Shown here: one piece after another, positions 7,148 through 49,691 of the stretch
Layout of the letters: the number at the start of each line of letters is the position of its first letter
How positions within the stretch are numbered: the stretch's first letter is position 1
NCBI GenBank assembly: GCA_021786265.1
Contig: JAJYNP010000144.1
Location: 61,320-125,319 of the forward strand
Length of the DNA: 64,000 nt
Direction of reading: 5' to 3'
From: Chloroflexota bacterium
GTDB lineage: Bacteria; Chloroflexota; Limnocylindria; Limnocylindrales; CSP1-4
Notes under the pieces: generated by a model
What the model was told of the DNA's origin: nothing
What the model saw: only the letters and a program-made list of their open reading frames with translations
Databases searched by the model: none
Translations under genes and position numbers: made by a program

Positions 7148-7151
7148 ACCG

Positions 7152-14687: not shown

Positions 14688-14694
14688 GTCCCCC

Positions 14695-30425: not shown

Positions 30426-30429
30426 CGGC

Positions 30430-34122: not shown

Positions 34123-34927
34123 TCCGCGTTCCCCGTGGCGCGCCGAGCGGCGGTCGATGGCTGGCCACCGCGGCGCCTTCATTCTGGACCCGCGGAAGTG
34201 GCGGACGCGAATCGGGGCCCTCGGGGGCGGAGCGCCGGAGGTGGACGACGCACAGCAGCGGATCGTCGGCGGCAAACGGCTCGAGTTCGGCAACGCACAC
34301 GGCGGTCCCCAGGCGCTCGAACGTCTGCTCGAGCATCCCGGCGTGGACCCCGCAGACCACGGCGCGATGGTCTCGCGCGACCGCCTCGAAGGGGCAGCGG
34401 CGGAGCATGATGCGATCCCCGGCAACGGGGAGGTCCGGTGCGAAGCCCAGGTGATCCATGAGGCCGGCGACCGTGTTGACGGCGTCGTCGGCGGCCAGGG
34501 GACCCGCGGCGGCATCGGGAATGACGTCGAGGGCTTCCACCCAGCGCCGCCCCGCCGAGCGGGCCGCGCCGGAGGGGTCGGCCAGGCCCGAGAGCTGACT
34601 CGCGAGCACGCTTGCCAGGCGGCGGTAACCATCGGTGGCACCGGGTGCCGCGGCTGGCTCCGCCTCGCTGCGAGCGTCGCCGCTCGCGCCGGCCCGGGCG
34701 ACGTAGCGGATCCGCGGCCGGCCGGCGGTGCCGCGCCGCTCGACCTGGCGGTCGACGAGACCGGCGGAGACGAGCAGGTCGAGGTGGAACCGGGTCGTGC
34801 TCGGATGGAGCCCGAGCACCTCCGCCGCATCCTCCACCGACAGCGCGTGTCCGGCGGCGCGCAGCGCCGTCAGCAGCGCGGCACGGCTCTCGGCTGCCAG
34901 CACATGCTGCACGCGCGTCTCCGTCAT
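34115..34927 (-). CDS. Winged-helix regulator with C-terminal cysteines, probable Fe-S redox sensor of the nar genes
   Basis: 270 residues. ArsR/DeoR-like wHTH at 8-75 (ALSVEDAAEVLGLHPSTTRF, HLDLLVSAGLVDRQVE, GRPRIRYVA) and a C-terminal ligand domain with Cys178, Cys192, Cys211 and Cys226 (RCPFEAVARDHRAVVCGVH). The CPF...VCxxH pattern is that of SufR-type regulators, which bind an iron-sulfur cluster; calling it a redox or NO sensor is inference. It is the first gene of the minus-strand transcript into narGHJI and is divergent from narK. Its ATG lies only 8 bases downstream of a TATAAT, so its mRNA is probably leaderless. A perfect palindrome at 34932-34945 is the likely binding site. No Fnr or NarL gene is present in the window. 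Confidence 0.82.
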   Translation of the reverse strand: MTETRVQHVLAAESRAALLTALRAAGHALSVEDAAEVLGLHPSTTRFHLDLLVSAGLVDRQVERRGTAGRPRIRYVARAGASGDARSEAEPAAAPGATDGYRRLASVLASQLSGLADPSGAARSAGRRWVEALDVIPDAAAGPLAADDAVNTVAGLMDHLGFAPDLPVAGDRIMLRRCPFEAVARDHRAVVCGVHAGMLEQTFERLGTAVCVAELEPFAADDPLLCVVHLRRSAPEGPDSRPPLPRVQNEGAAVASHRPPLGAPRGTRNG

Positions 34928-34931
34928 AGCT

Positions 34932-34945
34932 GTGATTATAATCAC
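34932..34945. promoter_or_regulatory. 14-bp palindromic operator overlapping divergent -10 elements (narK / nar regulator)
   Basis: GTGATTATAATCAC is a perfect palindrome. It contains TATAAT on the plus strand (34937-34942, towards narK) and, by symmetry, on the minus strand (34941-34936, towards the regulator and narGHJI). One bound dimer would cover both -10 hexamers and block both transcripts. No good -35 is obvious on either side. It differs from the Fnr consensus (TTGAT-N4-ATCAA). Confidence 0.75.
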
Positions 34946-34997
34946 CGCAAACAGCGTTGTGCCGAGTGTGATGCGCGTCCCGAGGAGCGCAGTGACC

Positions 34998-36386
34998 ATG
35001 ACGTCACCGGATCGTGTGGCAGAGGCGGCCGCGGGCGGGACCGGCGGATCGGGAGCGAGGGCGATCCGGGGGACCCGCTCCCAGGCGCTCTGGCTCGCCA
35101 CGCTCGGGTTCTTCGGGGGGTTCGCGGGCGTCTCGATCTTCGGGCCGATGGTCCCGAAGTTCACCGACCTGCTCGGCCTCAGCCCATTCGAGGCCGGCCT
35201 GCTCGCGGCGATCCCCGCGCTCACCGGATCGCTGCTCCGGATCCCCTTCGGGGCGGCGGTGGACCGGGTGGGCGGCAGGCGGCCGTTCCTCGCGCTGCTC
35301 GTGCTCGCCAGCGCCGGGGTGGCCGGGCTGCTCTGGCTCCTCGCGAGCACCTATCCCGACCACATGGCCGGCACCTACCCGCTCCTGCTCGTCCTCGGCG
35401 CCCTCATCGGCTGCGGGATCGCGACCTTCTCGGTGGGGATCGCGCAGGTGTCGTACTGGTTCCCCAGGCGGGAGCAGGGCGGCGCACTCGGCGTCTACGC
35501 CGGGCTGGGCAACACGAGCCCCGGGCTCTCGACGATGGTCCTGCCGATCGCGGTCGGGTCCCTCGGCATGCTGGGCGCGTACAGCATCTGGTTCGGCATC
35601 CTGCTGGCGGTCACGATCGTGTACGCGCTGGCCATCCGGGACGCGCCCTGGTTCCAGCTGCGGTCGTGGGAGGCATCCGTCGACGCCATCCGGGTGGTCG
35701 AGGTCGGCGGAAGCGAGCTGACGCCGAGCGGGAGCGCGCTGGCCGGACTCCGCCGTGCGGCGACGATCCCGGCCACGTGGGCCCTCGTCTTCTTCTACTT
35801 CCTCTCTTTCGGCGGCTTCCTTGCCTTCACTTCGTGGCTGCCCACGTTCTGGCACGCGATGTACGGCTCGGCGCTTCGGGACGCCGGTGTGCTGACGGCG
35901 ATCTTCTCCCTCGTGAGCGCGTTCATCCGGGTGCCCGGCGGACTGCTGTCCGATCGCGTGACGATCCGTTTCGCGCTGCCGCTCAACTTCGTGCTGATGC
36001 TGGCCGGCACGCTGGTGCTCGCGTTCTCCGACGTGTTCTGGGTCTCGCTGGCGGCGACCGCCGCGGTCGGTCTCGGCATGGGACTGCAGAACGCCATCGT
36101 GTTCAAGCTGCTCCCCTCGTATGTGCCGGACGCCGTGGGTGGGGCCTCCGGATGGGTCGGCGGCCTGGGCGCCCTCGGCGGGTTCGTCATCCCGCCGATC
36201 ATGGGCATCGGCACCGGCCTGGTCGGAGGCTCTGCGGCCTATGCCAGAGGGTTCCTCCCGTTCGCGGTGCTCATCGTCCTTGCGTTCCCGATCGTCTGGT
36301 GGCTGAGCCGCTGGAGCGCCCGCCGGCACGACGTGGCCACCCCGGCGCCCGCCTCCGGGACCGGGCCGGGGAGAGTTCCCGCGTGA
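34998..36386 (+). CDS. narK: Nitrate/nitrite transporter, major facilitator superfamily
   Basis: 462 residues from ATG 34998 (GAGGAG about 10 bases upstream; GTG 34992 also possible). Twelve predicted TM helices. NarK/NasA features: GFFGGFAGVSIFGPMVPKF in TM1, RIPFGAAVDRVGGRRPF (MFS loop 2-3 motif), GIAQVSYWFPRREQGGALG and the nitrate signature region GLGNTSPGLSTMVLP in TM5, and a second Gly-rich stretch GLQNAIVFKLLPSYVPDAVG, then GASGWVGGLGALGGFVIPP in TM11. One conserved Arg in each half (RIPFG; RVPGG) would bind the anion. Supplies nitrate to NarG or exports nitrite. Divergent from the regulator-narGHJI operon and shares its operator. Confidence 0.92.
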   Translation: MTSPDRVAEAAAGGTGGSGARAIRGTRSQALWLATLGFFGGFAGVSIFGPMVPKFTDLLGLSPFEAGLLAAIPALTGSLLRIPFGAAVDRVGGRRPFLALLVLASAGVAGLLWLLASTYPDHMAGTYPLLLVLGALIGCGIATFSVGIAQVSYWFPRREQGGALGVYAGLGNTSPGLSTMVLPIAVGSLGMLGAYSIWFGILLAVTIVYALAIRDAPWFQLRSWEASVDAIRVVEVGGSELTPSGSALAGLRRAATIPATWALVFFYFLSFGGFLAFTSWLPTFWHAMYGSALRDAGVLTAIFSLVSAFIRVPGGLLSDRVTIRFALPLNFVLMLAGTLVLAFSDVFWVSLAATAAVGLGMGLQNAIVFKLLPSYVPDAVGGASGWVGGLGALGGFVIPPIMGIGTGLVGGSAAYARGFLPFAVLIVLAFPIVWWLSRWSARRHDVATPAPASGTGPGRVPA

Positions 36387-36460
36387 GCGTCCGGCCAGAC
36401 GCGGCCACCGCGAGCCGCGCGGCCCAGGCGGCCCGACCGGCACGGGGCATCCGATCGTGA
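36383..36460 (+). CDS. 25-codon bridging ORF between narK and ywiC
   Basis: GTG 36383 overlaps the narK stop (GTGA) and its own TGA (36458-36460) overlaps the ywiC GTG in the same way. It encodes a basic, Ala-rich peptide (MSVRPDAATASRAAQAARPA, then RGIRS). It may exist only to keep ribosomes translating from narK into ywiC. No family. Confidence 0.35.
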   Translation: MSVRPDAATASRAAQAARPARGIRS

Positions 36461-37239
36461 GTGCGGCGACACCGGGCGCGCTGGCGCGGCATGGCGCGCG
36501 GGTGCGCTGGATACCCCGGCAGCACGGTGCCTGGGCGATGCTCGCGGTCCCCCTCCTGCTCGGGGTCGCTGCCAGCCGCCCGGGTCCCTGGCAGGCGGTG
36601 CTGTCCGTGACCGCCATCAGCGGCTACCTGGCATCGAGTGCGGCTCTCGACTGGATCCGCGCTCGCCGGCGGGCTTACCTCGAGCCGGCCGCGGTGTTCG
36701 GCACCGTCTTCGTGGTGTCCGGAACCGTCCTGCTGGCCGCGTTCCCCCGGCTGATCGTAGTCGCCGGCATCGTGGGCCCCGCCGCCGTCGTCGCCGGTTG
36801 GGCGGCCATGACAGGCCATCCGCGGAGCCTGGTCGCCAGCCTCGCCCATGTGGCCCAGGCTATCGTGCTCGTCCCGGCGGCGGCCGTGGTGGCAGGTCCC
36901 GTCAACGGGCCGACGGTCGCACGGGCTGCACTCGTGGCCGGCCTGTACCTCGTGAGCTCGGTGCTCGTGGTCCGCTCGATGATCCGCGAACGGGGCAACC
37001 GCGGGTTCGTCGCGGCGTCGATCGGCTATCACGCGGTGGTCGTGGCGGTCGAGGCCTGGCTGCTGCCCTGGGTCTACGCGCTGCTGGCGCTGGGGCTCAC
37101 GCTCCGGGCGGCCGCGCTCCCGGTGCTGCAGGTGCGCCTTGAGGGTGGGGCACGACGCCTGCGCCCGATCCACCTGGGGCTCGTGGAGATTGCCTCGTCG
37201 GTGGCGCTGCTGCTGCTGGCCTTCCTCGTGCGGTTCTAG
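36457..37239 (+). CDS. YwiC-like integral membrane protein
   Basis: 260 residues from GTG 36457. The N-terminal signature WIPRQHGAWAMLAVPLLLGV is diagnostic of the YwiC-like family; about seven TM helices follow (for example GYLASSAALDWI, VFGTVFVVSGTVLLAA, LYLVSSVLVVRSMI). In Bacillus the founding member lies in the nar region next to narK/fnr, so the same linkage here supports a role in nitrate respiration, still undefined. Translation may be coupled to narK through a 25-codon ORF. Confidence 0.85.
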   Translation: MSAATPGALARHGARVRWIPRQHGAWAMLAVPLLLGVAASRPGPWQAVLSVTAISGYLASSAALDWIRARRRAYLEPAAVFGTVFVVSGTVLLAAFPRLIVVAGIVGPAAVVAGWAAMTGHPRSLVASLAHVAQAIVLVPAAAVVAGPVNGPTVARAALVAGLYLVSSVLVVRSMIRERGNRGFVAASIGYHAVVVAVEAWLLPWVYALLALGLTLRAAALPVLQVRLEGGARRLRPIHLGLVEIASSVALLLLAFLVRF

Positions 37240-37343
37240 GCGAAGGTCCGCGGGCTTCGCGCGCTGGCGACGCGCCTGGTCGGCGACGCCTGGCCGCTGG
37301 TCGCGATGGGCGCCGTGCCTGTGACCGCCGTCCACCCACGAAC

Positions 37344-37372
37344 GGAGAGGGTCCGTGGCGTGGGCCCTCTCC
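37344..37372 (+). terminator. Hairpin downstream of ywiC
   Basis: GGAGAGGG (37344-37351), 13-base loop, CCCTCTCC (37365-37372): a perfect 8-bp stem about 105 bases after the ywiC stop. There is no T-run, so termination would need Rho or be weak. Confidence 0.4.
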
Positions 37373-37483
37373 TCCGCGGCTCGGGAGGATCGGCGGCAAC
37401 CAGCGGTACGGCTCTTGCGTCCGCGCGCCCCTGACCGAGGGACGCGGCGATGACGACACGATCGGCCCGGCGCGGCCGCGAGC

Positions 37484-37975
37484 GTGAGGAGGCGCGGCAC
37501 GACCAGCATCGCCGGCGTCCTGCCGGTGCGGCTCTCCATGGCCGGCTTCGACCCCAGGGTCATCGACGCGAAGGTGGGCCAGACGGTCAAGCTCGACTTC
37601 TGGAACGCCGACAACGCCATGCACCTCGACGGGGGCGGGGTCCACACCTTCATCATGGACAGCCAGCACATCTACGTGACGATCCCGGCCGGGGCGGGCA
37701 AGGCCTACGCGTTCACGGCCCCGGCCGCGCCGGGCGTCGACGGGGCCGCGATCCTCGGGCTGGCGGCCGCGGTCGAGGCGGACTCGGCGCACAGGTGCGG
37801 CCGCAGCGTCAGGCGTCGGCGATCGACCGGCGGATGCGCGCGATCTCGCCTGCGTCCCACAGGCCCAGGAAGGCGTCCACGACCGCGGGGTCGAAGCTGT
37901 TCCCCGACAGACGACGGATCTCGGCCAGGGCCTCTTCGTCCGGCCAGGCCTCCTTGTAGTGGCGCTTGGTGGTGA
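37484..37975 (+). pseudogene. Cupredoxin-domain fragment
   Basis: The part at about 37520-37745 reads as a cupredoxin: LPVRLSMAGFDPRVIDAKVG, QTVKLDFWNADNAMHL, GGGVHTFIMDSQHIYVTIPA, GAGKAYAFTAPAAPG. The copper-site His (VHTF) is there, but the C-terminal Cys-x-x-x-His-x-x-x-Met loop is missing: the frame goes on into Arg-rich nonsense and overlaps the convergent HD-GYP gene by 167 bases. No signal peptide. Likely the stump of an exported copper protein, perhaps a nitrous-oxide or nitrite reductase accessory or a plastocyanin-like carrier. Confidence 0.55.
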
Positions 37976-39497
37976 GCGCGTCGAACACGTCGGCCACCGA
38001 GGTCAGCCGAGCGCACAGCGGGATCTCCTCGCCCCTGAGTCCGCCCGGGTAGCCGGTGCCGTCCCAGCGTTCGTGATGGTTGCGCGCGATCTCCCGGGCC
38101 ACGGCGAAGAAGTCACGGTCGCCCAGGATGCCTGCGCCGTGGGCCGGATGGCGGCGCATCTCCACCCATTCTTCCTCGGTCAGCTTGCCGGGCTTGCCCA
38201 GGATCTCGTCGGGCACGAGCAGCTTGCCGACGTCGTGCATGATGCTGGAGTATCCGATGACCTCGATCTCGTCCTCGGGCAGGCCGAGCGTCCGGGCCAG
38301 CGCCTCCGTGTACGCCTGGACGCGCCTGAGGTGGCTGCCGGTCAGGCCGTCGCGGGCCTCCACGGCAGCCGCCAGCATGAACATCGCGTTCTTGTGCGCC
38401 TCCTTCTCGGCCCGGTAGGCCTCCTCCAGCTGCTGGCGGAGCGCATGCTCCTGCTCGAACAGCCGGGCGTTGACCACGGCGACCGCGGCCTGATCGGCCA
38501 GGTGGCGGAAGCGCCGGCGCTCGTCTTCCGAGAGACTCCGGTGCGACTGGTAGACCACCGCGAGCACACCGATGAGCTCGTGATCGGCGAGCATCGGCCA
38601 GGCATAGTCCTCGACGATCCCGTAGCGGTCGAACAGCGCGCGGACCGCGGGCGGCGCGATCGGGTCGATCGCGCGAAGGGCAGGCGCTTCGCGGCGGTGC
38701 CACGCCGCCTGGGTTGCCGGGTCGATCGACCCGGTGAACCGCGTTCCCACCAGCCCCTCGATCGGCGCCCCGTCCGGGGAGGCGACGGACCGCACCTCCC
38801 ACTCCCCGTCCCCGGAGACGAGGACCACCAGCACGGTTCCCGAGCCTGCGAACTCGCGTGCTCGCTGCACGAGCAGCGCAAGGAGCGTGTCGAGGTCGTG
38901 CGTCATGGTCAGGGCCAGTCCGATCTCGTTGACCGTCCCGATCTCGCTCTCCATCTTCTCGGCGGCGCCCATGAGCAGCTCGATCACCTGCCCGCGCTCG
39001 AGGGACAGGATCGTGTCCTCGGGGGCAACGGGAGGCGGCACCCGCGATGCGGAGAGCCTGGCGCGCCACATGCGGATGTCGTCCACGATGCGCGCGACGC
39101 GCGTGGAGAGGACGGCTGGCTCGAGCGGCTTGGTGATGTAGTTGTCCGCTCCGACCTGCACGGCCCGCACGATGTCGGTCGCGCGGTCGCGGTGGGTCAC
39201 CAGGACGAAGGGGATCGAGCGCAGATGCGGGTCGTGCTTGGCCTGCGCGCACATCTCGAACCCGTCGACGCCGGGCATGTCGATGTCGGCCAGCACGATG
39301 TCCGGGTGTTCTCGGGTCATGAGATCCAGACCCGCGTGGCCGTCGTGGGCGACGAGCACGCGATGCCCGTCCGCCCGCAGGACGTTGACCGCCCAGGCTG
39401 CCTGCGTCCGGCTGTCCTCCACCACCAGCACGGTCGCGGGCACCGGATCTGCCCTGGCGTCGTCCTCAGAGCGACCTTCCCTTGACGCGCGCTCCAT
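37809..39497 (-). CDS. Response regulator c-di-GMP phosphodiesterase (REC-GAF-HD-GYP), output of the Che cluster
   Basis: 562 residues from ATG 39497, which has AAGGGAGAG at ideal distance (GTG 39524, overlapping cheB's stop, is the alternative). Receiver domain with acceptor Asp about 71 (IVLADIDMPGVDG) and Lys in YITKPLEP; a GAF domain (about 170-330: SVASPDGAPIEGLVG, LADQAAVAVVNARLFEQE); then HD-GYP: VEARDGLTGSHLRRVQAY, SSIMHDVGKLLVPDEIL, HPAHGAGIL, ARNHHERWDGTGYPGGLRGE, ARLTSVADVFDALTTKRHYK. HD and GYP residues are intact, so it should hydrolyse c-di-GMP when phosphorylated. Last gene of the cheW-cheR-cheW-mcp-cheA-cheB operon. It sits where Wsp systems carry the cyclase WspR. Confidence 0.93.
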   Translation of the reverse strand: MERASREGRSEDDARADPVPATVLVVEDSRTQAAWAVNVLRADGHRVLVAHDGHAGLDLMTREHPDIVLADIDMPGVDGFEMCAQAKHDPHLRSIPFVLVTHRDRATDIVRAVQVGADNYITKPLEPAVLSTRVARIVDDIRMWRARLSASRVPPPVAPEDTILSLERGQVIELLMGAAEKMESEIGTVNEIGLALTMTHDLDTLLALLVQRAREFAGSGTVLVVLVSGDGEWEVRSVASPDGAPIEGLVGTRFTGSIDPATQAAWHRREAPALRAIDPIAPPAVRALFDRYGIVEDYAWPMLADHELIGVLAVVYQSHRSLSEDERRRFRHLADQAAVAVVNARLFEQEHALRQQLEEAYRAEKEAHKNAMFMLAAAVEARDGLTGSHLRRVQAYTEALARTLGLPEDEIEVIGYSSIMHDVGKLLVPDEILGKPGKLTEEEWVEMRRHPAHGAGILGDRDFFAVAREIARNHHERWDGTGYPGGLRGEEIPLCARLTSVADVFDALTTKRHYKEAWPDEEALAEIRRLSGNSFDPAVVDAFLGLWDAGEIARIRRSIADA

Positions 39498-39520
39498 CTG
39501 ACTCTCCCTTCCCACTTCCG

Positions 39521-40600
39521 TCACGCGTCCGGCACCCCCTGCCTCCGGCTCTGGGCTGCCAGCGCGGCGACGGTGCGGCCCATGGCGTCCAGCGCAACCG
39601 TGTGCCCGGCTGCGCCAGCTTCGAGCGCCGCCTGCGGCATGCCGAACACGGCGCAGCTCGCCTCGTCCTGCGCGAGCGTCAGCGCGCCGCGCGACCGCAT
39701 CGCGAGCAGCCCGTCGGCGCCGTCACGGCCCATGCCGGTCAGGATGATCCCCATGCCGCGCGGCCCGTACGCCTCGGCAACCGACCGGAACAGGGCCGTG
39801 GCGGAGGGGCGGTGACCGTCGACCGGCGCGTCGTCGCGGAGCCTGATGCGCCCCGCCGGCTCCACGCGCAGGTGGAGCCCGTCCGGGGCGATGAACACGC
39901 TGCGCGGCGCGACCCGATCGCCATCCCGCGGCACCACCACGGGACCGGGAGCGGCGTCCTGGAGCCAGCGGACGAGTCCGTCGACGAACCCCTCCGCGAT
40001 GTGCTGCACGACCAGGATCGGCGGCTCGAATCCCCGGGGCAGATCGCCGAGCAGCCGATGCAGGGCGGCCGGGCCCCCGGTCGATGCCCCGACGGCGATC
40101 AGCTCCACCGGCGCGCGTGGCGCCGGAGGAGAGGTCTGCGACACAACCCTCGAGGGCGGACGCGATGGCACGTCGATGCGACGTACCAGCCTGACGCCGG
40201 CCATGAGCCGGAGCTCGTCGAGGAGCGCCTGCCGGCGCTCCTCGTACCGCGCGTCAGCCGGACCGACAGGACGAGCCACCACCGAGAGCGCCCCCGAGGC
40301 GAGCGCGTCGAACGTGGATCGCCCGTCGACGTTCGAGCTCGCGGTGACGACCACGATCGGCGTGGGAACTTCGCGCATGATCCGCCGCGTCGCCTCGACG
40401 CCATCCAGTCGCGGCATGTGCAGGTCCATCGTGACCACGGCCGGCCGCAGCCGGGCAACGGCCTGCAGCGCCGCCTCTCCGTCGCCCACCGCCCCGACGA
40501 GTTCGAATCCTTCGGCGCGCGACACGATGCCGGCCAGCAGCGCACGCGTCACGGCGCTGTCCTCCACGACGAGCACCCGGATCGGTGCCCCCGCCGGCAT
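39521..40600 (-). CDS. cheB: Chemotaxis-type protein-glutamate methylesterase
   Basis: 359 residues. N-terminal receiver (VLVVEDSAVTRALLAGIV, acceptor Asp59 in VVTMDLHMPRLDG) and C-terminal methylesterase with the catalytic triad motifs AVGASTGGPAALHRLL (Ser), LVVQHIAEGFV (His) and TGMGRDGADGLLAM (Asp). Removes methyl groups from the cluster's MCP to reset the signal after CheA phosphorylation. Its ATG overlaps the cheA stop (TGATG). Confidence 0.95.
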   Translation of the reverse strand: MPAGAPIRVLVVEDSAVTRALLAGIVSRAEGFELVGAVGDGEAALQAVARLRPAVVTMDLHMPRLDGVEATRRIMREVPTPIVVVTASSNVDGRSTFDALASGALSVVARPVGPADARYEERRQALLDELRLMAGVRLVRRIDVPSRPPSRVVSQTSPPAPRAPVELIAVGASTGGPAALHRLLGDLPRGFEPPILVVQHIAEGFVDGLVRWLQDAAPGPVVVPRDGDRVAPRSVFIAPDGLHLRVEPAGRIRLRDDAPVDGHRPSATALFRSVAEAYGPRGMGIILTGMGRDGADGLLAMRSRGALTLAQDEASCAVFGMPQAALEAGAAGHTVALDAMGRTVAALAAQSRRQGVPDA

Positions 40601-42990
40601 CAGCCCACCACGGAGCGGATCGTCTGGAGCAGCACGCGCTGGTCGAACGTGCTCTTCGGGATGTACGCGTCGGCGCCGGCCAGGAGCCCATGCTCCTGCT
40701 CCTCCGCGGACTCCAGGGCCGACACGAGGATCACCGGGAGAGCCCGCAGCGCCGGGTCGGATTTCACCCGACGGGTCAGCTCGAGGCCGTCCATGCGCGG
40801 CATGTCGACGTCCGCGACCACGAGGTCGTAACGGGCGCGACGCAGCTCGCCGAGCGCGGCCAGTCCGTCCACGGCCACGCCGACCGCGAAGCCGGCCGCC
40901 TCGAGAATGCTCTTCTCGAGCGTTCGCGTCGTAATCGAGTCGTCCACGATGAGCACCGCCGCCGGGCGCTCGGCCGTCCCCGCCTCTGCGTGGTGCGACA
41001 CCGGGGACGGTCGCACACGATGCTCCTCCGCGGCTCGCACGAGCTGGACGGGGTCGAGGATCAGCGCCAGGTCGTCCTCACCGAGGAGCGCCGCCCCGCT
41101 GACGAGCGAGGTGCCGCCGGCTCGCATGAGGAGATCGCCGAGCCCGCGCGCCAGCACGCGCCGATCGGCGATCACCTCCCCGACGACGAAGCCGACGGTT
41201 CGGCCGGCGCTGCGCACGACAACGACCGACCGGCAGGAGTCGTTCTCGTCCGCCTCGCCGTCGCCGACCAGATGGGCGAGGTGGGCGAGTGGGACCGTCT
41301 CCCCCTCCAGGCGGATGGTCTCGCGCCCGGCTACCTGGGTGACATCCCCTGGAGCGAGCCGCAGACACCGCTCCACGGCCGCGATCGGGAGCGCGTACCG
41401 CCGCGCGTGTCCGCGCACGAGCAGCACGTGCGCCATCATCAGGGTCAGCGGCAGCAGCAGCGTGACGCGCGTGCCGCGGCCGACCTCCGATGCGACGCTC
41501 ACCGACCCGCCGATGCGGGCGACGGCTTCCCCCACGGCATCCAGCCCGACCCCGCGGCCCGACACCTCCGTGACCGCATCCGCCGTCGTCACGCCACCGC
41601 GCAGGACGAGGGCGATGGTCGCGGCCGCGTCCGACGTGGGTGGCAGGCTGGCTTCAGGGATTCCAGCCCGCAGCGCCGCGGCGTGCACGCGCTGCGGGTC
41701 GATCCCGCGGCCATCGTCGCGCACTTCGACGACGACGCCGCCTCCGCGCTGGCCTGCCTCGAGCACGATCGTCCCGACCGCCGGCTTGTCCGCCGCCAGC
41801 CGCTCGGCGGCGGTCTCGATCCCGTGGTCGACCGCGTTGCGCAGCAGATGCATCACGGGATCCTTGAGCCGCTCGAGGATCTGCCGGTCGATCTCCGTCT
41901 GCCAGCCCAGCTCCCGCAACTGGACCTGCTTCCCTGCCGCACGCGCCAGTTCCCGGACCATCAACGGGAACTGGCCGAATGCCGTCTGGGCGGGCACCAG
42001 GCGCAGCTCGAGCGCGTCCCGGGTCACCTCGGCGGTGAGACCGGCGATCCGGCTCCGATCGGCCGCCGCGGTGGCCGTCAGGCGCGCCAGCTCACGCTCC
42101 AGGCGCTGGAGATGCGCGCCAGCCTCGACGGCGAACGAGTGGACCGCACTCCACGGCGGAGCAGCGTCCACGGGGGCGGTCGTTTCCAGTGTTCCCCGGA
42201 GATGCTGCCAATCCCGGCGCCACGACGCGACCGATCCGCGAAGCCGGCGTACCTCGGCGTGCAGGTGGCCCGCGCGCTCCTCCACCGTGAAGAGCTCGCC
42301 GCCCCGGGCGAGCAACCCGTCCAGACGGGCCGTGCGGACCCGCACACTGTCGGGGCCCAGGGTGGCCTGCGTTCCCTCTGCGGGAGCCGGCACCGGGAGC
42401 GTCCTCTCCGCACGCGCCGCCGGGTCGGCGTCAGCTCTCCCCTCGGGCCAGGACTCGCTCTCCCGGGCCTGCGGCCAGAGACCGGTGCCCCGCACCTCCT
42501 GCGCCGGGGCCGTGCCGCTCCGTCTCGAGGCTGCGCGTCGCGCCCGTGACCGCGGGTCTTCGCCTGCAGCGCTCCGTGGCGGCTGCCGGGCACGTACGGG
42601 CGGCACGGGCCGCGGATCGAGCCGGCTCACCGCGGCCGCGACGTCCACGGTGTGCGCCGTGCTCGGGTTCACGAGCGCCCCCAGCGACGCAATCGTGTCG
42701 AACAGCGGTTGGAGCGACGCGCCCCCCGGGCCCTCCGCCCGCAGCATGGTGCCGAGGGTGCCCTCGAGGGCGTGGGCCACGGCACTGACGTCCGGCAGCG
42801 AGACGACCTGGGCGGCTCCCTTCAGGCTGTGGGCATCGCGGGTGAGACGGGTGAGCAGCTCGACGGCGGCAGGTCCGTCCGGCGCAGTTTCGAGGGCCAG
42901 CAAGTCCCGCTCCAGGCTGCGAAGGCGCTCCTGCACCTCGACCGCAAAGGTCGCGGCCAGCTCCCGCTCGAGCGCACGGTCCATGGCCAT
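40600..42990 (-). CDS. cheA: Hybrid chemotaxis histidine kinase CheA with C-terminal receiver
   Basis: 796 residues. Hpt domain with phospho-His54 (TRDAHSLKGAAQVV); a roughly 110-residue Pro/Arg-rich linker with no recognisable CheY-binding P2 domain; dimerisation helices; ATPase with LLRNAVDHGIETAAERLAAD (N box), VRDDGRGID (G1) and SGRGVGLDAVGEAV (G2); CheW-like coupling domain; and a C-terminal receiver (VLIVDDSITTRTLEKSIL, acceptor Asp about 727 in VVADVDMPRMDG, YIPKSTFDQ). A fused receiver and loss of P2 are WspE-like, suggesting that phosphate goes to receiver-output proteins (CheB, the HD-GYP protein), not to a flagellar CheY. ATG 42990 overlaps the mcp stop (TGATG). Confidence 0.94.
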   Translation of the reverse strand: MAMDRALERELAATFAVEVQERLRSLERDLLALETAPDGPAAVELLTRLTRDAHSLKGAAQVVSLPDVSAVAHALEGTLGTMLRAEGPGGASLQPLFDTIASLGALVNPSTAHTVDVAAAVSRLDPRPVPPVRARQPPRSAAGEDPRSRARRAASRRSGTAPAQEVRGTGLWPQARESESWPEGRADADPAARAERTLPVPAPAEGTQATLGPDSVRVRTARLDGLLARGGELFTVEERAGHLHAEVRRLRGSVASWRRDWQHLRGTLETTAPVDAAPPWSAVHSFAVEAGAHLQRLERELARLTATAAADRSRIAGLTAEVTRDALELRLVPAQTAFGQFPLMVRELARAAGKQVQLRELGWQTEIDRQILERLKDPVMHLLRNAVDHGIETAAERLAADKPAVGTIVLEAGQRGGGVVVEVRDDGRGIDPQRVHAAALRAGIPEASLPPTSDAAATIALVLRGGVTTADAVTEVSGRGVGLDAVGEAVARIGGSVSVASEVGRGTRVTLLLPLTLMMAHVLLVRGHARRYALPIAAVERCLRLAPGDVTQVAGRETIRLEGETVPLAHLAHLVGDGEADENDSCRSVVVVRSAGRTVGFVVGEVIADRRVLARGLGDLLMRAGGTSLVSGAALLGEDDLALILDPVQLVRAAEEHRVRPSPVSHHAEAGTAERPAAVLIVDDSITTRTLEKSILEAAGFAVGVAVDGLAALGELRRARYDLVVADVDMPRMDGLELTRRVKSDPALRALPVILVSALESAEEQEHGLLAGADAYIPKSTFDQRVLLQTIRSVVG

Positions 42991-44636
42991 CAGGCTCCCT
43001 CGCGTGCGGTGTGTTCCCCCGCCAGTCGGAAGCGCTCGCTCAGTTCGCGGAGGTGCCCGGCGAGCATGGTGAGCCCCTCCGTCTCCCGCTGCAGCTGGTG
43101 CGCGGCGGCGACCGTCTGTGTGGATACCTGGCCGATGTTGCCGGTGCCGGCCGCGATCTGGTCGACGCCCACCCGCTGCTGGCCGGCCGAGGCGGCGATC
43201 TGGCGCGCCGCCGCCGCGGCCTCGCCGATCGCGGCCACCAGCTGATCGATCACGATGCCCGCCTGCTCGACCCGCTCGACCGCGGCGCGAGCCCCCTTGG
43301 TTCCCTGCTCCGTGACCATCACCGCGGCGTTGGCGGCCTTCTGGATCTCGCCCAGGATCCCCGAGATCTGGGCCGTCGCCTCGCGGCTCTGGTCGGCCAG
43401 GTGCCGCACTTCCTGCGCCACGACGGCGAAGCCCCGGCCCTGCTCGCCCGCCTTGGCCGCCTCGATCGCGGCGTTGACCGCGAGCAGGTTGCTCTGGTCG
43501 GCCAGGTCGGTCACCGTCGTCACGATGTCGCCAACCGCCTGCGTCTGCTCCGAGAGCGCCATGATGCGCTGCGCGATGACGTCGACCTTCGAGGCGACGT
43601 CGGCGATCCCTTCCCGGGCGGCGCCCACGGAGGCCTGGCCCTCGGCCGCCGCCTCGCTGGTGCGCCCGGCGGCATCGGCCACGGATCTCGCCAGCTCGGC
43701 AGCCTGCTCGGCGGTGACGCGGACCTCCTCCACCGTGCTCATGATCTGGGTCACCGCGGCGGACTCCTCCGTCGCTCCTGCGGTGAGCTGGTTGACCGCG
43801 GCCTGGATCTCGGCGGAGGCGGAGGAGAGGTTGATCACGGCGTCGCGCTGCGCCTCCAGGTTTCCGCGCAGGCTCGCGGTCATGTCGGTGAACGCGGTCG
43901 CCAGCACTCCAACCTCGTCGGTGCGCCGGCTGCCCGGCACCGTGGACGAGAGGTCCCCGCCGGCGACCCTGCGCGTCACCTGTGCGAGCGATTCGATGGG
44001 GCGCACCACCGCGCGGCTCACCCAGATGGATGCGAGGAGAATGAAGAGGCCGATGAGGAGCGCGCCTGCCAGCCCGAGGACGCGGAGGAGGTCGAGCGCC
44101 GACGCGAGGTCGGACGCGGCGGCCTGTGAGGCGCTCTCGAGACTGTCCAGGAACTGGCCGTTGGTTCGCACGACCGTGTCCACCGAGGCGGTGGCATCCG
44201 TGCTGGCCGCGGCGGCGTTCAGGACCGCCTGAGCGGCGGTTTCGTACGGGGTCCACTGCTGCTGGACCACGGCCATATCCGCGGCGATCGCGGGACCCGC
44301 CGGCGGGACCTCGACGGTCTGCCCCCCGCCACCGGTCACCACGGGGAGCGGCGCGGCGCCGCCGTTGACGAGTGCCTGGACCGTGCGATCGAAGCGGTCC
44401 ATGACCGCGCTCAGGTCGCTGCGCACGGCGGGATCGTTGCCTCGCGCGAGCAGGAGCACGTCCTTCACGATGATCTGGCTGCGCGCACGCTCGGCGTCGG
44501 CGAGTCTGCTCACGCGTCCCGACATGGAGACGCGATCGCTGAGCGTCACCAGGGCGAAGATGTCGAGCGCGGCCAGCAGCAGAATCGCCAGGCTGGCGAC
44601 CGCGACGCGGCCGCGCAGGGTGTGCAGATCCATCAT
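42990..44636 (-). CDS. mcp: Methyl-accepting chemotaxis protein
   Basis: 548 residues. TM1 (about 12-32), an extracytoplasmic helical sensor of about 150 residues with a Gly/Pro-rich loop ([18 protein letters not shown]), TM2 (about 185-210), HAMP, then a long signalling coiled coil. The hairpin tip is typical: [40 protein letters not shown]. There is no C-terminal CheR-tethering pentapeptide (it ends HTAREGA). Methylation sites are expected in the Ala/Glu-rich flanks. Sensor ligand unknown. Its ATG overlaps the stop of the upstream cheW (ATGA). Only MCP of the cluster. Confidence 0.95.
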
Positions 44637-45142
44637 GCAGACCTCCCGCTCACGATGCGGATGATGTCGTCGAACAGGTGCATCGGCTCCAGGACCAGGC
44701 CGGCATGGGCGTCGAGCCCCAGCCCCACGGCCTGCGCGAGGCGCGAGAGGCTGTCCGGCGGGCGTTCCAGGGTCGCGCGGGCGATGGTGCCGATGCCGGT
44801 CACGTCGTCGGCCAGCAGGCCCGCCGTCAGGGCACCCCCCGTCACCACGACGATCGTGCGGGCCGGCTCGACCACCGCCGCACCGAAGAGCGCGGCAGGA
44901 TCGATGGCCACGACGACCTCGCCGCGGATGGCGACGACGCCCGCGACGAGGGCAGGGGCCCCGACCAGTGGCTCGAGGCGCGGCAGCGGCCGCACCGTCT
45001 GCACTGCGGCGGCCGGAACGGCGTAGCGAGCCCCGCGACGGAACGTGACGACGGTCTCCTGCTCGGCGTCCGGCGGTTGCTCGAGCGGGCGTGCCAGCAC
45101 CTGGGCCCTGCGCTCGAGGATGGCCCGGTCGTCCGCCTCCAC
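44633..45142 (-). CDS. cheW: CheW-type coupling protein
   Basis: 169 residues from GTG 45142, 5 bases after the cheR stop; the GAAGGG directly before the GTG is unusually close. CheW fold visible: [59 protein letters not shown] and LFDDIIRIV at the end. An extra N-terminal helix (about 25 residues) precedes the fold. Couples the MCP to CheA. Second CheW of the operon, located between cheR and mcp. Confidence 0.87.
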
Positions 45143-45147
45143 TCCCT

Positions 45148-46626
45148 TCAGGCCTCGAGCGTGACGATGGCAGAGCGGACGCGACCCACGGTCAGCCCCT
45201 CGCCCTCGTCGAGCAACATGGCGTCCGGGCGACCGTCCAGGAGCGCCTCTGCCGCCCGCAGGCGCGCGCGCGCCCGGGAGGTGCGGCCGCGTCGCCACTC
45301 CAGCAGCCCCAGCCGGAATTGCAGCAGCGGATCGTCGGGTCGCAGGTAGATCGCCCGACCGAGCGCATCGCACGCCCCGTCGAGGTTCTCACGCGCGTCG
45401 GCGACCGCGGCGAGAAGGACGTACCCGCTCACGGCGCGCCGGTCGAGCGTGAGCGCGCGATGGCAGGCATCCTCCGCTGCCGCCAGGTCGCCCGCGTCCG
45501 CCAGGCGGCGCGCCCGCAGGAGCAGATCCCCCGCACCGGCCGCAGTTGCCAGGCGGACGGACGGGACGGCCGGAGGCCGACCCTCATACGGTCGGCCCCA
45601 CGGGGCGGGCGGCCTCATCGTCGCGGTCCGGGCCGGTTCCGACGCAGCGGGTTGTGCCGGCGCCTCGGCCGCGATGGACGGGGCGCCGGCCAGCGGCCTC
45701 TGGTACAGCGTGAAGCCGTCGCGCTGATGCGCGACGAAGCGCCGGTACAGGTCGGGCGACGGCTCGACGGGCCCGACCAGAAGCCAGCCCCCCGGCGCCA
45801 GCGCCTCGAAGAGGCGGTCGACGATGCCGCGCACCGTCTCCTGGCCCATGTAGATCGTGACGTTGCGGCAGACGATCGCGTCGGCGGATCCTGCGAGGGC
45901 CGCCGGCAGCGGGACCCTCGCGTCGGCCAGGTTGTGCGCCTCGAACGAGACGAGCGCGGAGAGCGCCGTGTGCACCCGCCTGCCCCCGCCGGTCGGCACG
46001 AACCACCGTGCCTGGTACTCGCCAGGGACACGGAACGACCAGCGACCGTAGGTGCCGCGACGTGCGTGTTCCAGGGCCGCCTCGTCGATGTCCGTGCCCA
46101 CCACGCGCACGTCCCAGCGCAGGGGGTCGCGCAGCGTTTCCGCTACCAGGATGGCGAGCGTGTACGCCTCCTCGCCCGTCGAACAGCCCGCGCTCCACAC
46201 CCGGAGCGAAGGTCCGGGCCGGTCCTGGCGAGACCGAACGAGCGGCGTGAGCGCAAGCTCGCGAAAGGCCTCCAGCTGCTCGGCGTGCCGGAAGAAGTAC
46301 GTCTCCCCGACGGTCACCAGCGATACAAGACGCCGCCAGGCCGGACTGCCTGGCGCGCTCAGCTCGGCGAACGCCGACGGCGCGGGACCGAATTCGTCGA
46401 GCCAGGCGGCCGCCGCGCGCTCGAGCTGTGGCCGCCGCGCGGTGTCGAAGCGCAGCCCCGTGCGCTGCTCCAGGAGGGCCGCAATGCGGTCGACACCGTC
46501 GCCGGGCGCGAGGTTGAGGCCGCTGTGGGGCGGACCAGGCTGCCCCGTGGGGGCGCGCTCCTGCCCTGTGGGGGCGCGCTCGTGGGCGCCCCCCGGAAGC
46601 GGCCCTGATCGCTCGGCGAACAGCAT
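45148..46626 (-). CDS. cheR: Chemotaxis-type protein-glutamate methyltransferase with C-terminal TPR region
   Basis: 492 residues. A low-complexity N-terminus ([18 protein letters not shown], a tandem duplication visible in the DNA at about 46540-46580), CheR helical domain ([35 protein letters not shown]), SAM-binding domain ([75 protein letters not shown]), Pro-rich linker, then TPR-like helices ([60 protein letters not shown]). The TPR tail matches WspC-type CheR. The ATG overlaps the upstream cheW stop (TGATG). Confidence 0.94.
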
Positions 46627-47171
46627 CAACCGGGCGATCCAGCGGTGGTCCGGGTGATGCCGCCCCTGCCCGGCAGCGCGCCACGGATGCTGGCGGCGAC
46701 ATGGCCGAAGAGCAGCTCGGGGTCGGAGACGATCACGATCTCGGTCTCGCTCCCGAAGAATCGCGCCGGACTCAGCCCGCGCGCCTCCTCTTCGGGCGCC
46801 GCTCCGGGCGGCTCCAGTGCAGAGTCCGGCGGCGGCAGGGCGTCGTATTCGAGCGAGACCACGTCGAGCGCGCGGTCGACCGGCACCGCCATCGTGCCAC
46901 CGGCGCACGTCACGAGCACCATCCGGTCCGACGTGCGCATTCCGCGTCGTGGCAAGTGCAGCGTCGCGCGTGCGTCGACGACCGGGACGAGATCCCCGCG
47001 CACGTTGATGAAGCCAAGCAGCGTCGAGGAGTGGCCGCCGAGGGGCGTGATCGCGACGGCACGAACCACCTCGCGGACGGTGGCCAGGGGCAGAGCCCCA
47101 ACCCAGTCGTCGATCGCGACAAGCAGCGCCGTCATCCGGTTGTCCGTGTCCTGGCTTCCCGGCTGGATCAA
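46626..47171 (-). CDS. cheW: CheW-type coupling protein, first gene of the operon
   Basis: 181 residues from TTG 47171, which has GGGGGAAAG at good distance; ATG 47136 lacks a ribosome-binding site. CheW fold: TALLVAIDDWVGALPLATVR, EVVRAVAITPLGG, LLGFINVRGDLVPVVDARAT, LVTCAGGTMAVPVDRALDVV, LSPARFFGSETEIVIVSDPE. Two CheW genes flanking cheR is the Wsp-like arrangement. A hairpin at 47229-47253 lies 58 bases upstream. Confidence 0.9.
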   Translation of the reverse strand: MIQPGSQDTDNRMTALLVAIDDWVGALPLATVREVVRAVAITPLGGHSSTLLGFINVRGDLVPVVDARATLHLPRRGMRTSDRMVLVTCAGGTMAVPVDRALDVVSLEYDALPPPDSALEPPGAAPEEEARGLSPARFFGSETEIVIVSDPELLFGHVAASIRGALPGRGGITRTTAGSPG

Positions 47172-47228
47172 CGGCTCTTTCCCCCGCGTGCCGATAGGCG
47201 TCGCTGGCGGTCAGTGGTGCTGTCCGCC

Positions 47229-47253
47229 ACGGACGTTGTCCATCAACGTCCGT
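47229..47253. promoter_or_regulatory. 10-bp inverted repeat upstream of the che operon
   Basis: ACGGACGTTG (47229-47238), loop TCCAT, CAACGTCCGT (47244-47253). It lies between the divergent cheW and diguanylate cyclase genes, next to an AT-rich TAATAC (minus strand 47257-47252) that may be the che -10. It could be an operator at the transcription start or a 5'-UTR hairpin. Confidence 0.6.
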
Positions 47254-47475
47254 ATTATTCGACCTGAACTGACGACATGTCCAGACTGGATTTACCCGTG
47301 CACCGCGTCACGCCCGCTGACGCGACGAGCAGGGTGATGCCGGCCGGACGCTTCGGGGCGTTCAGCTTGCTGAGGGCGTGTTGGATGTGATTGCGGGCAG
47401 TCGTAGGATCGTCGCGATGCGTCCCCGACCCCTACCCCTGGCTCGATGGACTGCGCGCGCGTTGGGGAGGGAGGG

Positions 47476-48708
47476 GTGAGGGTCGTTGCCAGCCAGCGCG
47501 TTGCGAGGCGCGCGCGACCGGGGCGCGAAGAGCTGCGCCACAACGCCGCCCGGCGACGGGCCGTGCGTTCCTCGCTCACCCTCTTCGCACTCCACACCGT
47601 CGGGATCTCGCTCGCGGTTCTCGTGGCTTTCCCTGCCTTCTACGGCGAGACCAGTCCCTCCGTGACGGCGCTCGAGGTCGCGCAGGCCGCGTGCGCGGGC
47701 ATCGCGTTCATCCTGGCGCGCGGTCCGCTGCGCCGTCACCCTCAGCCCGTCGCGTTCGCCCTCGGGCTGGCGGTGGTCACCGTGAGCCTGTCCGTCTTCG
47801 CGAGCGCGCCGGAAACCCACGTCATCGTCGGCGTCGGACTGGCCGTCGCGATCGTGGCGGTGGCGCTGTTCTTCCCGTGGAGCGAGCTGACGCATCGCCT
47901 CTGGCTGTCGGCGTGTGCCGTCCTCGCCGGGGTCTTCGCCCTCTCGCCGGTCGCACCGGCCGCGCTGGGCTTCGAGCACCGCCGCGACGTCTTCGTCGGC
48001 ATCGCCTTCGCCATCGCGGTGAGTGCGATGGCCCAGCCCGTGATCGAGCGTTCCCGCCGGCGCGCCTTCTCCCAGGAGCAGCGGCTGCGCGCCGTAGTGC
48101 GGACGAGACGCCAACAGGAATCGGTCCTCGAGCGGTTGGTCAGGGAGCTTGCGGAGACCGCGCGGAACGACGCGCTCACCGGCGTCGGCAACCGCCTTCG
48201 CTTCGACGAAGACCTGGCTACGGCCCGGGCTCGCTTGCAGCGCTACGGGCAGGGCTTCGCGCTCATCCTGATCGACGTCGACCACTTCAAGGCGTACAAC
48301 GACTGCTACGGTCACGTGGCAGGCGATACGGCCTTGCGGCAGCTCGCAGCGTGTCTCCGAGAGAAGAGTCGCGCCGGTGACGCCGTGTACCGGATCGGCG
48401 GCGAGGAGTTCATGGTCCTTCTGCCGGATCAGTCGCCGCAGGCTGCACGCGTGGCCGCAGAGCGGCTCCGCCAGGCGGTCGCCGGGCTGGCGGTTCAGCA
48501 CGCCGGCAACTCACCCTGGGGCGTCGTGACGGTCAGTCTCGGCGTCACGGCTGCGCAGCCAGGCGACGGCCGCTCGGTCGACGCCTGGCTGCGCGACGCA
48601 GATGCCAGGCTGTACGCCGCCAAGCGGGCGGGCCGCAACCGTGTCGCCGTGGCCCGGCCGGCGAGCGGGAGTACATCTCGCGTTGGTGGGCAATCGGCGA
48701 TGCCGTGA
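47476..48708 (+). CDS. Membrane diguanylate cyclase (GGDEF family)
   Basis: 410 residues from GTG 47476 within GGGAGGGAGG. Six TM helices (about 30-210), a short coiled coil (QQESVLERLVRELAETARND) and a GGDEF domain: DALTGVGNRLRFDEDLA, LILIDVDHFKAYNDCYGHVA, active site RIGGEEF (GGEEF at 308-312), LRDADARLYAAKRAGRNRV. RAGD five residues before GGEEF is a product-inhibition I-site. It therefore should make c-di-GMP with feedback control. Transcribed divergently from the Che cluster whose output protein degrades c-di-GMP, so synthesis and breakdown genes face each other across a 300-base regulatory gap. Confidence 0.93.
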   Translation: MRVVASQRVARRARPGREELRHNAARRRAVRSSLTLFALHTVGISLAVLVAFPAFYGETSPSVTALEVAQAACAGIAFILARGPLRRHPQPVAFALGLAVVTVSLSVFASAPETHVIVGVGLAVAIVAVALFFPWSELTHRLWLSACAVLAGVFALSPVAPAALGFEHRRDVFVGIAFAIAVSAMAQPVIERSRRRAFSQEQRLRAVVRTRRQQESVLERLVRELAETARNDALTGVGNRLRFDEDLATARARLQRYGQGFALILIDVDHFKAYNDCYGHVAGDTALRQLAACLREKSRAGDAVYRIGGEEFMVLLPDQSPQAARVAAERLRQAVAGLAVQHAGNSPWGVVTVSLGVTAAQPGDGRSVDAWLRDADARLYAAKRAGRNRVAVARPASGSTSRVGGQSAMP

Positions 48709-48810
48709 AGGCGAGCAGATGCCCTGACGGCCGGTTGGCGCCGGGCCGGTCGGGAAGCATCCCTCTTGCTGTGACAACTCAGGCTGGGGCTCGGTCCGCG
48801 CCGCCGGGCG

Positions 48811-48927: not shown

Positions 48928-48996
48928 GGGTCGATTGCCTCGCAGCTCTGCGTAATTCCGTTGCCGCATACCTACTCATAGTGCCACAATATGTAC

Positions 48997-49299
48997 ATGA
49001 GCAGCCGAGTTGGAGAGCGCGGGCAGATCACCCTCAAGAAGTCGATCCGCGAGGAGCTGGGGATCTACGCCGGCGACGAGGCGGTCCAGCGGATCGAGGA
49101 CGGCCGGGTCGTCGTGGAGATCGTCCCCGCACGCCACCGCCGGTCGCTCGCAGGGATCCTCGCCGGTGCGGCCACGCGCCATCCACCGGACGAAGCGTGG
49201 GAGACCCTGCGCGCGGCCGCTGCCGCCGCCCCGGACCCCGACCGCTCGGACCTTCCCCCGTCTCTGCACGCCGACGGGAAAGCGGAGGGATCCGCGTGA
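48997..49299 (+). CDS. vapB: AbrB/SpoVT-type antitoxin (VapB-like)
   Basis: 100 residues from ATG 48997 (ATG 48991 two codons earlier). Swapped-hairpin AbrB domain: SSRVGERGQITLKKSIREEL, GIYAGDEAVQRIEDGRVVVE. The C-terminal half (GILAGAATRHPPDEAWETLR) would wrap the toxin. It directly precedes and overlaps a PIN-domain toxin gene (GTGA), the standard antitoxin-toxin order. The start codons lie in an AT-rich ATATGTACAT stretch, probably autoregulated. Confidence 0.88.
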   Translation: MSSRVGERGQITLKKSIREELGIYAGDEAVQRIEDGRVVVEIVPARHRRSLAGILAGAATRHPPDEAWETLRAAAAAAPDPDRSDLPPSLHADGKAEGSA

Positions 49300-49691
49300 T
49301 CTCCGCGGACACGTCCGTGCTGGTGCGCTACCTGGTCGGCTCCCCGCCCGACCAGGCGGCCCGAGCCGCCCGGCTGATCGACGAGTCGGAACGTCTCGGC
49401 GTGTCGCTCCTCGCTCTGGTCGAGTGCGCCCACGTGCTGCGGACGCAGTACGGCGTGGGCCGTACGGATGTGGTCAACGCGCTGATCGGGCTCGTACGAC
49501 GAGAGAACGTCCAGGTGCTGGGGCTGGATACGAACGACGCCACCGACGCGCTGCTGCGCGCCCGCGCCATCGTCTCGTGCCCGATCCCGGACGCCCTGAT
49601 CGCCGTGCAGGCGAGAGCGACTCGGGCCCTGCCCCTGTACACGTTCGATCGTGGCCTGTCCCGCATCGGGGTTCCCGTCGCCGAGCCGTAG
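49296..49691 (+). CDS. vapC: PIN-domain ribonuclease toxin (VapC family)
   Basis: 131 residues from GTG 49296 with GGAGGG 7 bases upstream. Four acidic catalytic residues are present: Asp5 (SADTSVLVRYL), Glu43 (ALVECAHVL), Asp99 (CPIPDALIA) and Asp118 (YTFDRGLSRIG), so it should be an active Mg-dependent RNase. Neutralised by the upstream AbrB-type antitoxin. Confidence 0.9.
   Translation: MISADTSVLVRYLVGSPPDQAARAARLIDESERLGVSLLALVECAHVLRTQYGVGRTDVVNALIGLVRRENVQVLGLDTNDATDALLRARAIVSCPIPDALIAVQARATRALPLYTFDRGLSRIGVPVAEP

What the first reader, a model, noticed from the sequence alone, without database searches (positions are those of the whole stretch)
37809..47171. Wsp-like chemosensory operon with an HD-GYP phosphodiesterase in place of the WspR cyclase
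Gene set: CheW, CheR with TPR tail, CheW, MCP, CheA with fused receiver and no P2, CheB, then REC-GAF-HD-GYP. This parallels WspABCDEF, where the last protein WspR makes c-di-GMP. Here the output should destroy c-di-GMP, so receptor activation would have the opposite sign. All catalytic residues look intact and genes overlap by 1-4 bases up to cheB, indicating one functional unit. No flagellar genes or cheY are present.
Basis: partly seen in the sequence, partly recalled or inferred. Interest (0 to 1): 0.8.

Follow-up and report, generated by a model that had tools for sequence, protein, structure and literature searches.

The report
Chemosensory operon ending in c-di-GMP phosphodiesterase
This is a seven-gene bacterial sensing operon, built like the Wsp surface-sensing system, whose last gene should destroy rather than make the signal molecule c-di-GMP; the same layout recurs in related bacteria, and a sister version carries a different enzyme on a similar receiver.

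Summary
On the minus strand, 47171-37809, lie CheW, CheR (weak TPR tail), CheW, MCP, CheA-REC without P2, CheB and REC-GAF-HD-GYP. Gaps are 5 bp or less; cheB and the HD-GYP gene overlap by 4 bp. Phospho-acceptor and HD-GYP ligand residues are intact. Two other genomes of the same class (probably Limnocylindria, Chloroflexota) keep the exact order and the 4-bp overlap, at 41-60% identity (weaker for the CheWs). It is most likely a chemosensory array controlling a c-di-GMP phosphodiesterase.

The layout is Wsp-like, but CheAs of five REC-GGDEF clusters are distant, so this is not a Wsp system with WspR replaced. The sister CheA clade, where output could be linked, has a hybrid histidine kinase sharing the HD-GYP protein's REC-helix-GAF part (39-43% identity) up to about residue 372, inside the helix leading to the effector: HD-GYP and kinase alternate. 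The sign of signalling is untested; a divergent diguanylate cyclase lies next door.

ACF systems with varied outputs, including EAL and a "metal-dependent phosphatase", are in print (PMC3447774). Verdict: new variant of a known kind, moderately interesting.

The parts
46626..47171 (-). CheW1 (TTG start 47171, or ATG 47135)
   Evidence: PF01584 1e-19
45148..46626 (-). CheR with weak C-terminal TPR; overlaps cheW1 by 1 bp
   Evidence: PF01739 1.4e-44, TPR_2 2.1e-4 below cut-off; gaps
44633..45142 (-). CheW2 (GTG start), 5 bp after cheR
   Evidence: PF01584 1.3e-16
42990..44636 (-). MCP: two TM segments, PilJ-type N-terminal domain, HAMP, MCP signalling domain; overlaps cheW2 by 4 bp
   Evidence: PF13675, PF00672, PF00015; hydropathy
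40600..42990 (-). CheA: Hpt (H54), HATPase, CheW, REC (D727); no P2 hit; overlaps mcp by 1 bp
   Evidence: Pfam; motifs
39521..40600 (-). CheB: REC + methylesterase; overlaps cheA by 1 bp
   Evidence: PF01339 2.4e-57
37809..39524 (-). REC-helix-GAF-helix-HD-GYP output (GTG 39524, or ATG 39497); overlaps cheB by 4 bp
   Evidence: PF00072, PF01590, PF13487; 4mcw match 2e-50; model mean pLDDT 82
47254..47283 (-). only promoter-like match in 37300-48800, upstream of cheW1
   Evidence: 10 of 12 consensus matches, shuffles mean 0.2; weak evidence
47229..47253 (.). perfect inverted repeat, two 10-bp arms with 5 bp between, beside the promoter-like site (possible operator or leader hairpin)
   Evidence: only exact copy in the window; not found in L132 or L133

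Best explanation
An ACF-type chemosensory array whose dedicated output is a c-di-GMP phosphodiesterase. The membrane receptor (PilJ-type N-terminal domain), coupled by two CheWs, controls CheA. CheA phosphorylates its own REC, CheB and the REC of the HD-GYP protein. Phosphorylation is passed along a helix, the GAF domain (a second, unidentified input) and a predicted 60-residue helix to the HD-GYP domain, which hydrolyses c-di-GMP. CheR and CheB give adaptation through receptor methylation. Shown: gene content, coupling by overlapping genes, conservation of order in two other genomes, intact residues. Inferred: phosphotransfer, activation by phosphorylation, and that hydrolysis is the output. 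Unknown: ligand and sign.
For: Domains and motifs. Overlaps, including cheB/output ATGA or GTGA, in the window, L132 and L133. Same order in two genomes of the class. CheA and HD-GYP homologues are listed with the same longest-contig length in five cases (14269, 9121, 6340, 30813, 17669), circumstantial except 17669, which L133 confirms in DNA. In the family alignment of the window plus 30 homologues (the 30 best of 536 hits), 31 of 31 rows keep REC D80, T110, K132 and HD-GYP H398, H430, D431, K434, H459, H483, H484, D512. The best solved relative is 4mcw. For RpfG, another REC-HD-GYP protein, phosphotransfer is stated to stimulate PDE activity (passage in PMC9758175).
Against: No biochemical data. 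The family lacks the third-metal ligand of PmGH (L in 30 and F in 1 of 31 rows), so the substrate could differ; 5z7c, a 3'3'-cGAMP phosphodiesterase, is the second-best PDB sequence hit. The sister operon uses a kinase on a similar receiver module, so the conserved function may lie in the receiver module rather than in c-di-GMP turnover.
Confidence: 0.65

Rival explanations
1. The HD-GYP domain hydrolyses another cyclic dinucleotide (such as 3'3'-cGAMP), or acts mainly as a c-di-GMP-gated partner protein; the array controls that instead.
For: Solved 3'3'-cGAMP phosphodiesterase 5z7c is the second-best PDB sequence match; RpfG can work as an adaptor independently of PDE activity (passages in PMC9758175).
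Against: Of the metal-ligand columns only the position of PmGH's E185 is changed; the others are invariant in 31 of 31 rows. The c-di-GMP phosphodiesterase 4mcw is a better match. The window encodes a diguanylate cyclase next door.
Confidence: 0.12
2. The functional unit is wider: the divergent diguanylate cyclase (47446-48708) and the phosphodiesterase form an opposed pair, and the array sets the balance between them.
For: Only 274 bp separate them and that gap holds the one promoter-like site and an inverted repeat; the cyclase has GGEEF and an RxxD site.
Against: The cyclase has no receiver, and no GGDEF domain was found in L132 or L133, which reach about 4.8 and 7.7 kb upstream of the operon.
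Confidence: 0.13
3. The array primarily steers motility or pili through c-di-GMP or through proteins elsewhere in the genome, and the HD-GYP gene is one of several outputs.
For: The receptor has a PilJ-type domain; freshwater CSP1-4 relatives are reported to carry flagellar and chemotaxis loci (passages in PMC13212565).
Against: No single-domain REC gene in the window; the last gene is translationally coupled to cheB in three genomes. The rest of the genome could not be searched.
Confidence: 0.1

Closest known systems
Wsp system of Pseudomonas and relatives (WspA-F, WspR)
   Same: MCP, two CheWs, CheR-TPR, CheA-REC, CheB, then one multidomain receiver protein as last gene (wsp gene content and order recalled)
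   Different: Output is REC-GAF-HD-GYP, not REC-GGDEF; the MCP gene stands before cheA instead of first; CheA is far from five CheAs of Proteobacterial REC-GGDEF clusters (these were chosen by domain order, not by the name Wsp)
ACF-class CheR-TPR clusters with multidomain response regulators (PMC3447774; abstract, section 9 and passages seen)
   Same: CheR-TPR, REC fused to an enzymatic output; the text lists an EAL regulator and the figure legend a 'metal-dependent phosphatase cd00077' (that cd00077 is the HD superfamily is recalled)
   Different: The passages and section seen do not name HD-GYP; its Table S2 was not seen
Hybrid-kinase operons of the sister CheA clade (L158; P0241-P0247)
   Same: CheA 51-56%, CheB 64%; output coupled to cheB by 4 bp; shared REC-helix-GAF part, 39-43% over 348-390 alignment positions
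   Different: After about residue 372: GAF-PAS-HisKA-HATPase-REC instead of HD-GYP
REC-HD-GYP genes further along CheA-REC/CheB clusters of other phyla (L028, L030, L066; L060 before the MCPs)
   Same: HD-GYP with receiver in the same cluster
   Different: Not directly after CheB; the receivers of L028, L030 and L066 lie outside the window's receiver clade (L060 not included)
RpfG-type REC-HD-GYP; PmGH 4mcw
   Same: Receiver- or GAF-linked HD-GYP with the HD/GYP ligands
   Different: RpfG is fed by the hybrid kinase RpfC (passage in PMC9758175); PmGH has a third metal ligand absent here

Membership tests
ACF-class chemosensory system | multidomain response regulator as output | tested here: met
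   REC-GAF-HD-GYP coupled to cheB
ACF-class chemosensory system | CheR fused to TPR | tested here: inconclusive
   TPR_2 E 2.1e-4, below the curated cut-off; no TPR hit at 1e-4 in the L132 CheR
ACF-class chemosensory system | CheA assigned to class ACF by the published class models | not tested
   those models were not available
Wsp system | REC-GGDEF (WspR) output | tested here: not met
   HD-GYP in its place; the GGDEF protein next door has no REC
Wsp system | CheA groups with CheAs of REC-GGDEF clusters | tested here: not met
   five such rows on their own 100% branch, a sixth (L004) elsewhere, none in the window's clade; quick tree with long branches
Wsp system | gene content of wspA-F | tested here: met
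   all six kinds present, MCP in another position
HD-GYP c-di-GMP phosphodiesterase | HD/GYP metal ligands and GYP motif | tested here: met
   4mcw alignment
HD-GYP c-di-GMP phosphodiesterase | hydrolysis of c-di-GMP | not testable with these tools
   needs assay

The most novel reading that the evidence does not exclude
Limnocylindria chemosensory arrays use a standard receiver 'socket' (REC-helix-GAF-helix) onto which different effectors are spliced at the same point in the helix: a c-di-GMP phosphodiesterase in one lineage, a hybrid histidine kinase in its sister. The same array thereby changes between phosphorelay and second-messenger control, and here runs with the opposite sign to Wsp.
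Probability: 0.33. Interest if true: 0.65.

Novelty: new variant of a known kind. Interest (0 to 1): 0.47.

Why it matters
The best-studied chemosensory control of c-di-GMP runs through a cyclase, WspR. A conserved array dedicated to a phosphodiesterase would be a natural sign-inverted counterpart. The paired sister operon with a hybrid kinase on a similar receiver module offers a natural experiment on how a signalling helix lets effectors be exchanged while the kinase partner stays of the same kind.

Tried and rejected
Centre genomes in other groups gave one full-length family member (G372, seen three times) at a contig end, so its upstream neighbours could not be seen.

Rejected: 'Wsp with WspR replaced'; 'gene order not conserved'; 'the neighbouring cyclase is part of the conserved unit'. 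I first supposed that the HD-GYP gene had been swapped into the hybrid-kinase clade. The tree needs only one change of output and does not tell its direction by itself; HD-GYP on both sides of the first fork of the 22-row clade makes a later kinase more economical, but outputs of nine of those rows, P0138-P0140, P0155 and P0156 among them, are unknown. Whether the exchange was a splice in the helix or replacement by a related gene is not resolved: the receiver-module tree neither joins nor rejects the kinase rows plus P0061 as one clade (p-AU 0.098). In it, window, c14269 and kinases stand against five HD-GYP proteins of the distant CheA clade (100/99), as in the CheA tree, but other HD-GYP rows are unplaced. 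Against the splice idea, the window's GAF-helix part is nearer to the HD-GYP proteins of the distant clade (39-41%) than to the kinases of the sister clade (28-32%), although CheA says the reverse (42-44% against 51-56%).

Rows dropped: one search used 83 CheAs (L158's, a fragment, was represented by P0129); one search used 30 of those 83. One search used 12 CheA-output pairs; the contig-48922 pair was left out because P0250 lacks the N-terminal receiver, and P0241 stood for the L158 output.

Full report
What is there. Seven genes on the minus strand, 47171-37809, were confirmed by Pfam: CheW; CheR with a weak TPR tail; CheW; an MCP with a PilJ-type N-terminal domain and two hydrophobic segments; CheA with Hpt, HATPase, CheW and REC but no P2 hit; CheB; and REC-GAF-HD-GYP. 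Distances between neighbouring genes are -1, +5, -4, -1, -1 and -4 bp, so the last gene is coupled to cheB as tightly as the others. Motifs for phosphorylation and catalysis are present. The best PDB sequence match of the output is the HD-GYP phosphodiesterase 4mcw (2e-50). By that alignment the ligands correspond, except that the position of PmGH E185 (name recalled) is L394. In the family it is L in 30 and F in 1 of 31 rows, while the other ligand columns are invariant in 31 of 31 (the window plus the 30 best of 536 hits). This suggests a two-metal rather than a three-metal site (inference). A model (mean pLDDT 82, pTM 0.55) shows REC, two linker helices (136-158, 168-207), GAF and one helix (333-392) running into the HD-GYP domain. 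Foldseek ranks 4mcw first; 4r8z is the first match of the HD-GYP part alone.

Where it comes from. No genome is held for the window. Its DAHP synthase (857-1933) is 95% identical to that of G240 and 92% to G144, then 69-79% in 16 further genomes of the 301 sampled, several of which (such as G120, G063, G248, G200) appear in the class of G240. That class has 177 held genomes. One of its contigs, G735:C87, has the length (17669) of the contig holding P0015, which NCBI labels Candidatus Limnocylindrales, and its CheA is identical to P0149 over the compared part. The window is therefore most probably Limnocylindria, Chloroflexota (inference). PMC13212565 (passages) reports nitrate reductase in sediment members and flagellar and chemotaxis loci in freshwater members of CSP1-4, the sister clade of Limnocylindraceae; this window has narGHJI.

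Conservation. The HD-GYP family (profile of 31 rows) was found in 2 of 177 class genomes at E 1e-90; in the rows shown at most 7 candidates per genome were scored, so misses are possible. Both hits, G727 (L132) and G735 (L133), have the same gene order CheW-CheR-CheW-MCP-CheA-CheB-output, with 41% (CheA), 49% (CheB), 47-49% (MCP), 42-43% (CheR) and 58-60% (output) identity, and a 4-bp cheB/output overlap. One CheW in each did not pass E 1e-4 in tblastn: the first CheW of L133 was seen by domain search, and the second of L132 by Pfam (69.4 bits). CheB at E 1e-25 was found in 21 of 177 genomes (at most 11 candidates scored in the rows shown); in 12 of the 21 the match covers only the methylesterase half. 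G240, the nearest genome by DAHP synthase, had neither at these thresholds. The operon is thus patchy even among near relatives, with genome incompleteness as a caveat. In other groups the family gave 0 of 5, 1 of 301 (partial match), 11 of 148 at 1e-70 with one full-length (G372), 1 of 5 (G372 again) and 1 of 393 (G372 again) genomes; samples overlap.

The output is what varies. I surveyed 80 CheA loci from other bacteria, typed by single-sequence domain searches whose sensitivity is limited. The next gene after CheB with a searched domain was a receiver without detected GGDEF, EAL or HD-GYP in 27, GGDEF in 10, GGDEF+EAL in 5, and HD-GYP in 0. In the rest no CheB was seen (15), none of the searched domains followed (17), the contig ended (4), or another Che part followed (2). 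In some (such as L044, L045, L050, L072) a REC-GGDEF gene lies between CheA and CheB instead. HD-GYP occurred elsewhere in 5 of 80 loci (L004, L028, L030, L060, L066). Of 11 class loci examined, HD-GYP followed CheB in 2 and another receiver protein in 4; of 15 further loci from the phylum, in 0.

The sister operon. The CheB closest to the window (64%) among the 177 genomes is in G718. There (L158) the gene coupled to cheB encodes a hybrid kinase. Its full-length homologue P0241 is REC-GAF-GAF-PAS-HisKA-HATPase-REC. The 459-residue CheA fragment of L158 equals P0129, a member of a 16-row clade, P0123-P0137 plus P0141 (50-53% identity over 99-100%, P0141 57% over 65%). Five rows of the clade are listed with the same longest-contig length as hybrid-kinase homologues (10313, 135028, 57560, 12738, 48922). 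This is circumstantial, and the 48922 partner, P0250, is a shorter gene call without the N-terminal receiver. The HD-GYP protein and the kinases P0241-P0247 and P0061 align as one stretch with 39-43% identity, stopping at window residue 352-372 in 8 of 8 comparisons, that is, inside the helix leading to the effector. In the receiver tree of 71 rows the kinases' receivers sit in one 42-row branch (97/95) with the HD-GYP family, P0061 and one long-branched output (L181); the other outputs lie outside. A CheA tree of 30 rows, whose midpoint root separates eight outside rows, puts the kinase clade beside the window's (95/92), with a second HD-GYP clade next to both. One change of output suffices; direction and route are open.

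How it most likely works. Receptor state sets CheA activity. CheA passes phosphate to its own receiver, to CheB (adaptation) and to the HD-GYP protein, where the change runs along helices through GAF to the phosphodiesterase. Phosphorylation raising activity is by analogy with RpfG (PMC9758175, passages). A diguanylate cyclase with GGEEF and an RxxD site is transcribed away from the operon across 274 bp, so local control may be a balance of both; it is not conserved in L132 or L133.

Known or new. CheA without P2 is common (nearly 52%) and with REC is found in about 35% (PMC10782961, passages). ACF clusters with CheR-TPR carry outputs including kinases, GGDEF, EAL and a 'metal-dependent phosphatase cd00077' (PMC3447774, abstract, section 9 and passages; that cd00077 is the HD superfamily is recalled). 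So a phosphodiesterase output of such a system is not new in kind. I noticed no paper describing HD-GYP as the sole coupled output, or this exchange, in the listings of ten searches of the held library; six papers were opened in part, and supplements were not readable. I rate it a new variant of a known kind.

Noticed in passing
window 47446-48708 (+): Divergent diguanylate cyclase, six hydrophobic segments (weak MASE8 match), GGEEF and RxxD site; no GGDEF beside the operon in L132 or L133.
   Followed up: partly
window 47229-47253: Perfect inverted repeat (10-bp arms, 5 bp between) next to the promoter-like site of the che operon; only exact copy in the window.
   Followed up: partly
window 4430-9293 (+): CHASE3-PAS-kinase-REC followed by REC-PAS-EAL: a second, receiver-driven candidate c-di-GMP phosphodiesterase in the same window.
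   Followed up: no
window 27353-37239: Nitrate reductase narGHJI (minus strand), an MFS transporter and a YwiC-like protein beside the operon.
   Followed up: no
window 11233-12516 (-): A serpin (protease inhibitor; PF00079, 9e-98), an uncommon find in bacteria (recalled).
   Followed up: no
window 48991-49691 (+): PIN-domain gene after a small AbrB-looking gene (the latter without Pfam hit): looks like a VapBC-type toxin-antitoxin pair.
   Followed up: no
window 12970-15294 (-): Two ECF-type sigma factors flanking a gene without Pfam hit that may be an anti-sigma factor.
   Followed up: no
L097 15078-16721: Full-length REC-GAF-HD-GYP relative (46%) in a genome of another class, at a contig end, so its che neighbours, if any, are unseen.
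   Followed up: partly
P0061: REC-GAF-HisKA-HATPase protein sharing the receiver-GAF part without the extra GAF/PAS: a possible third effector on the same module; context unknown.
   Followed up: no
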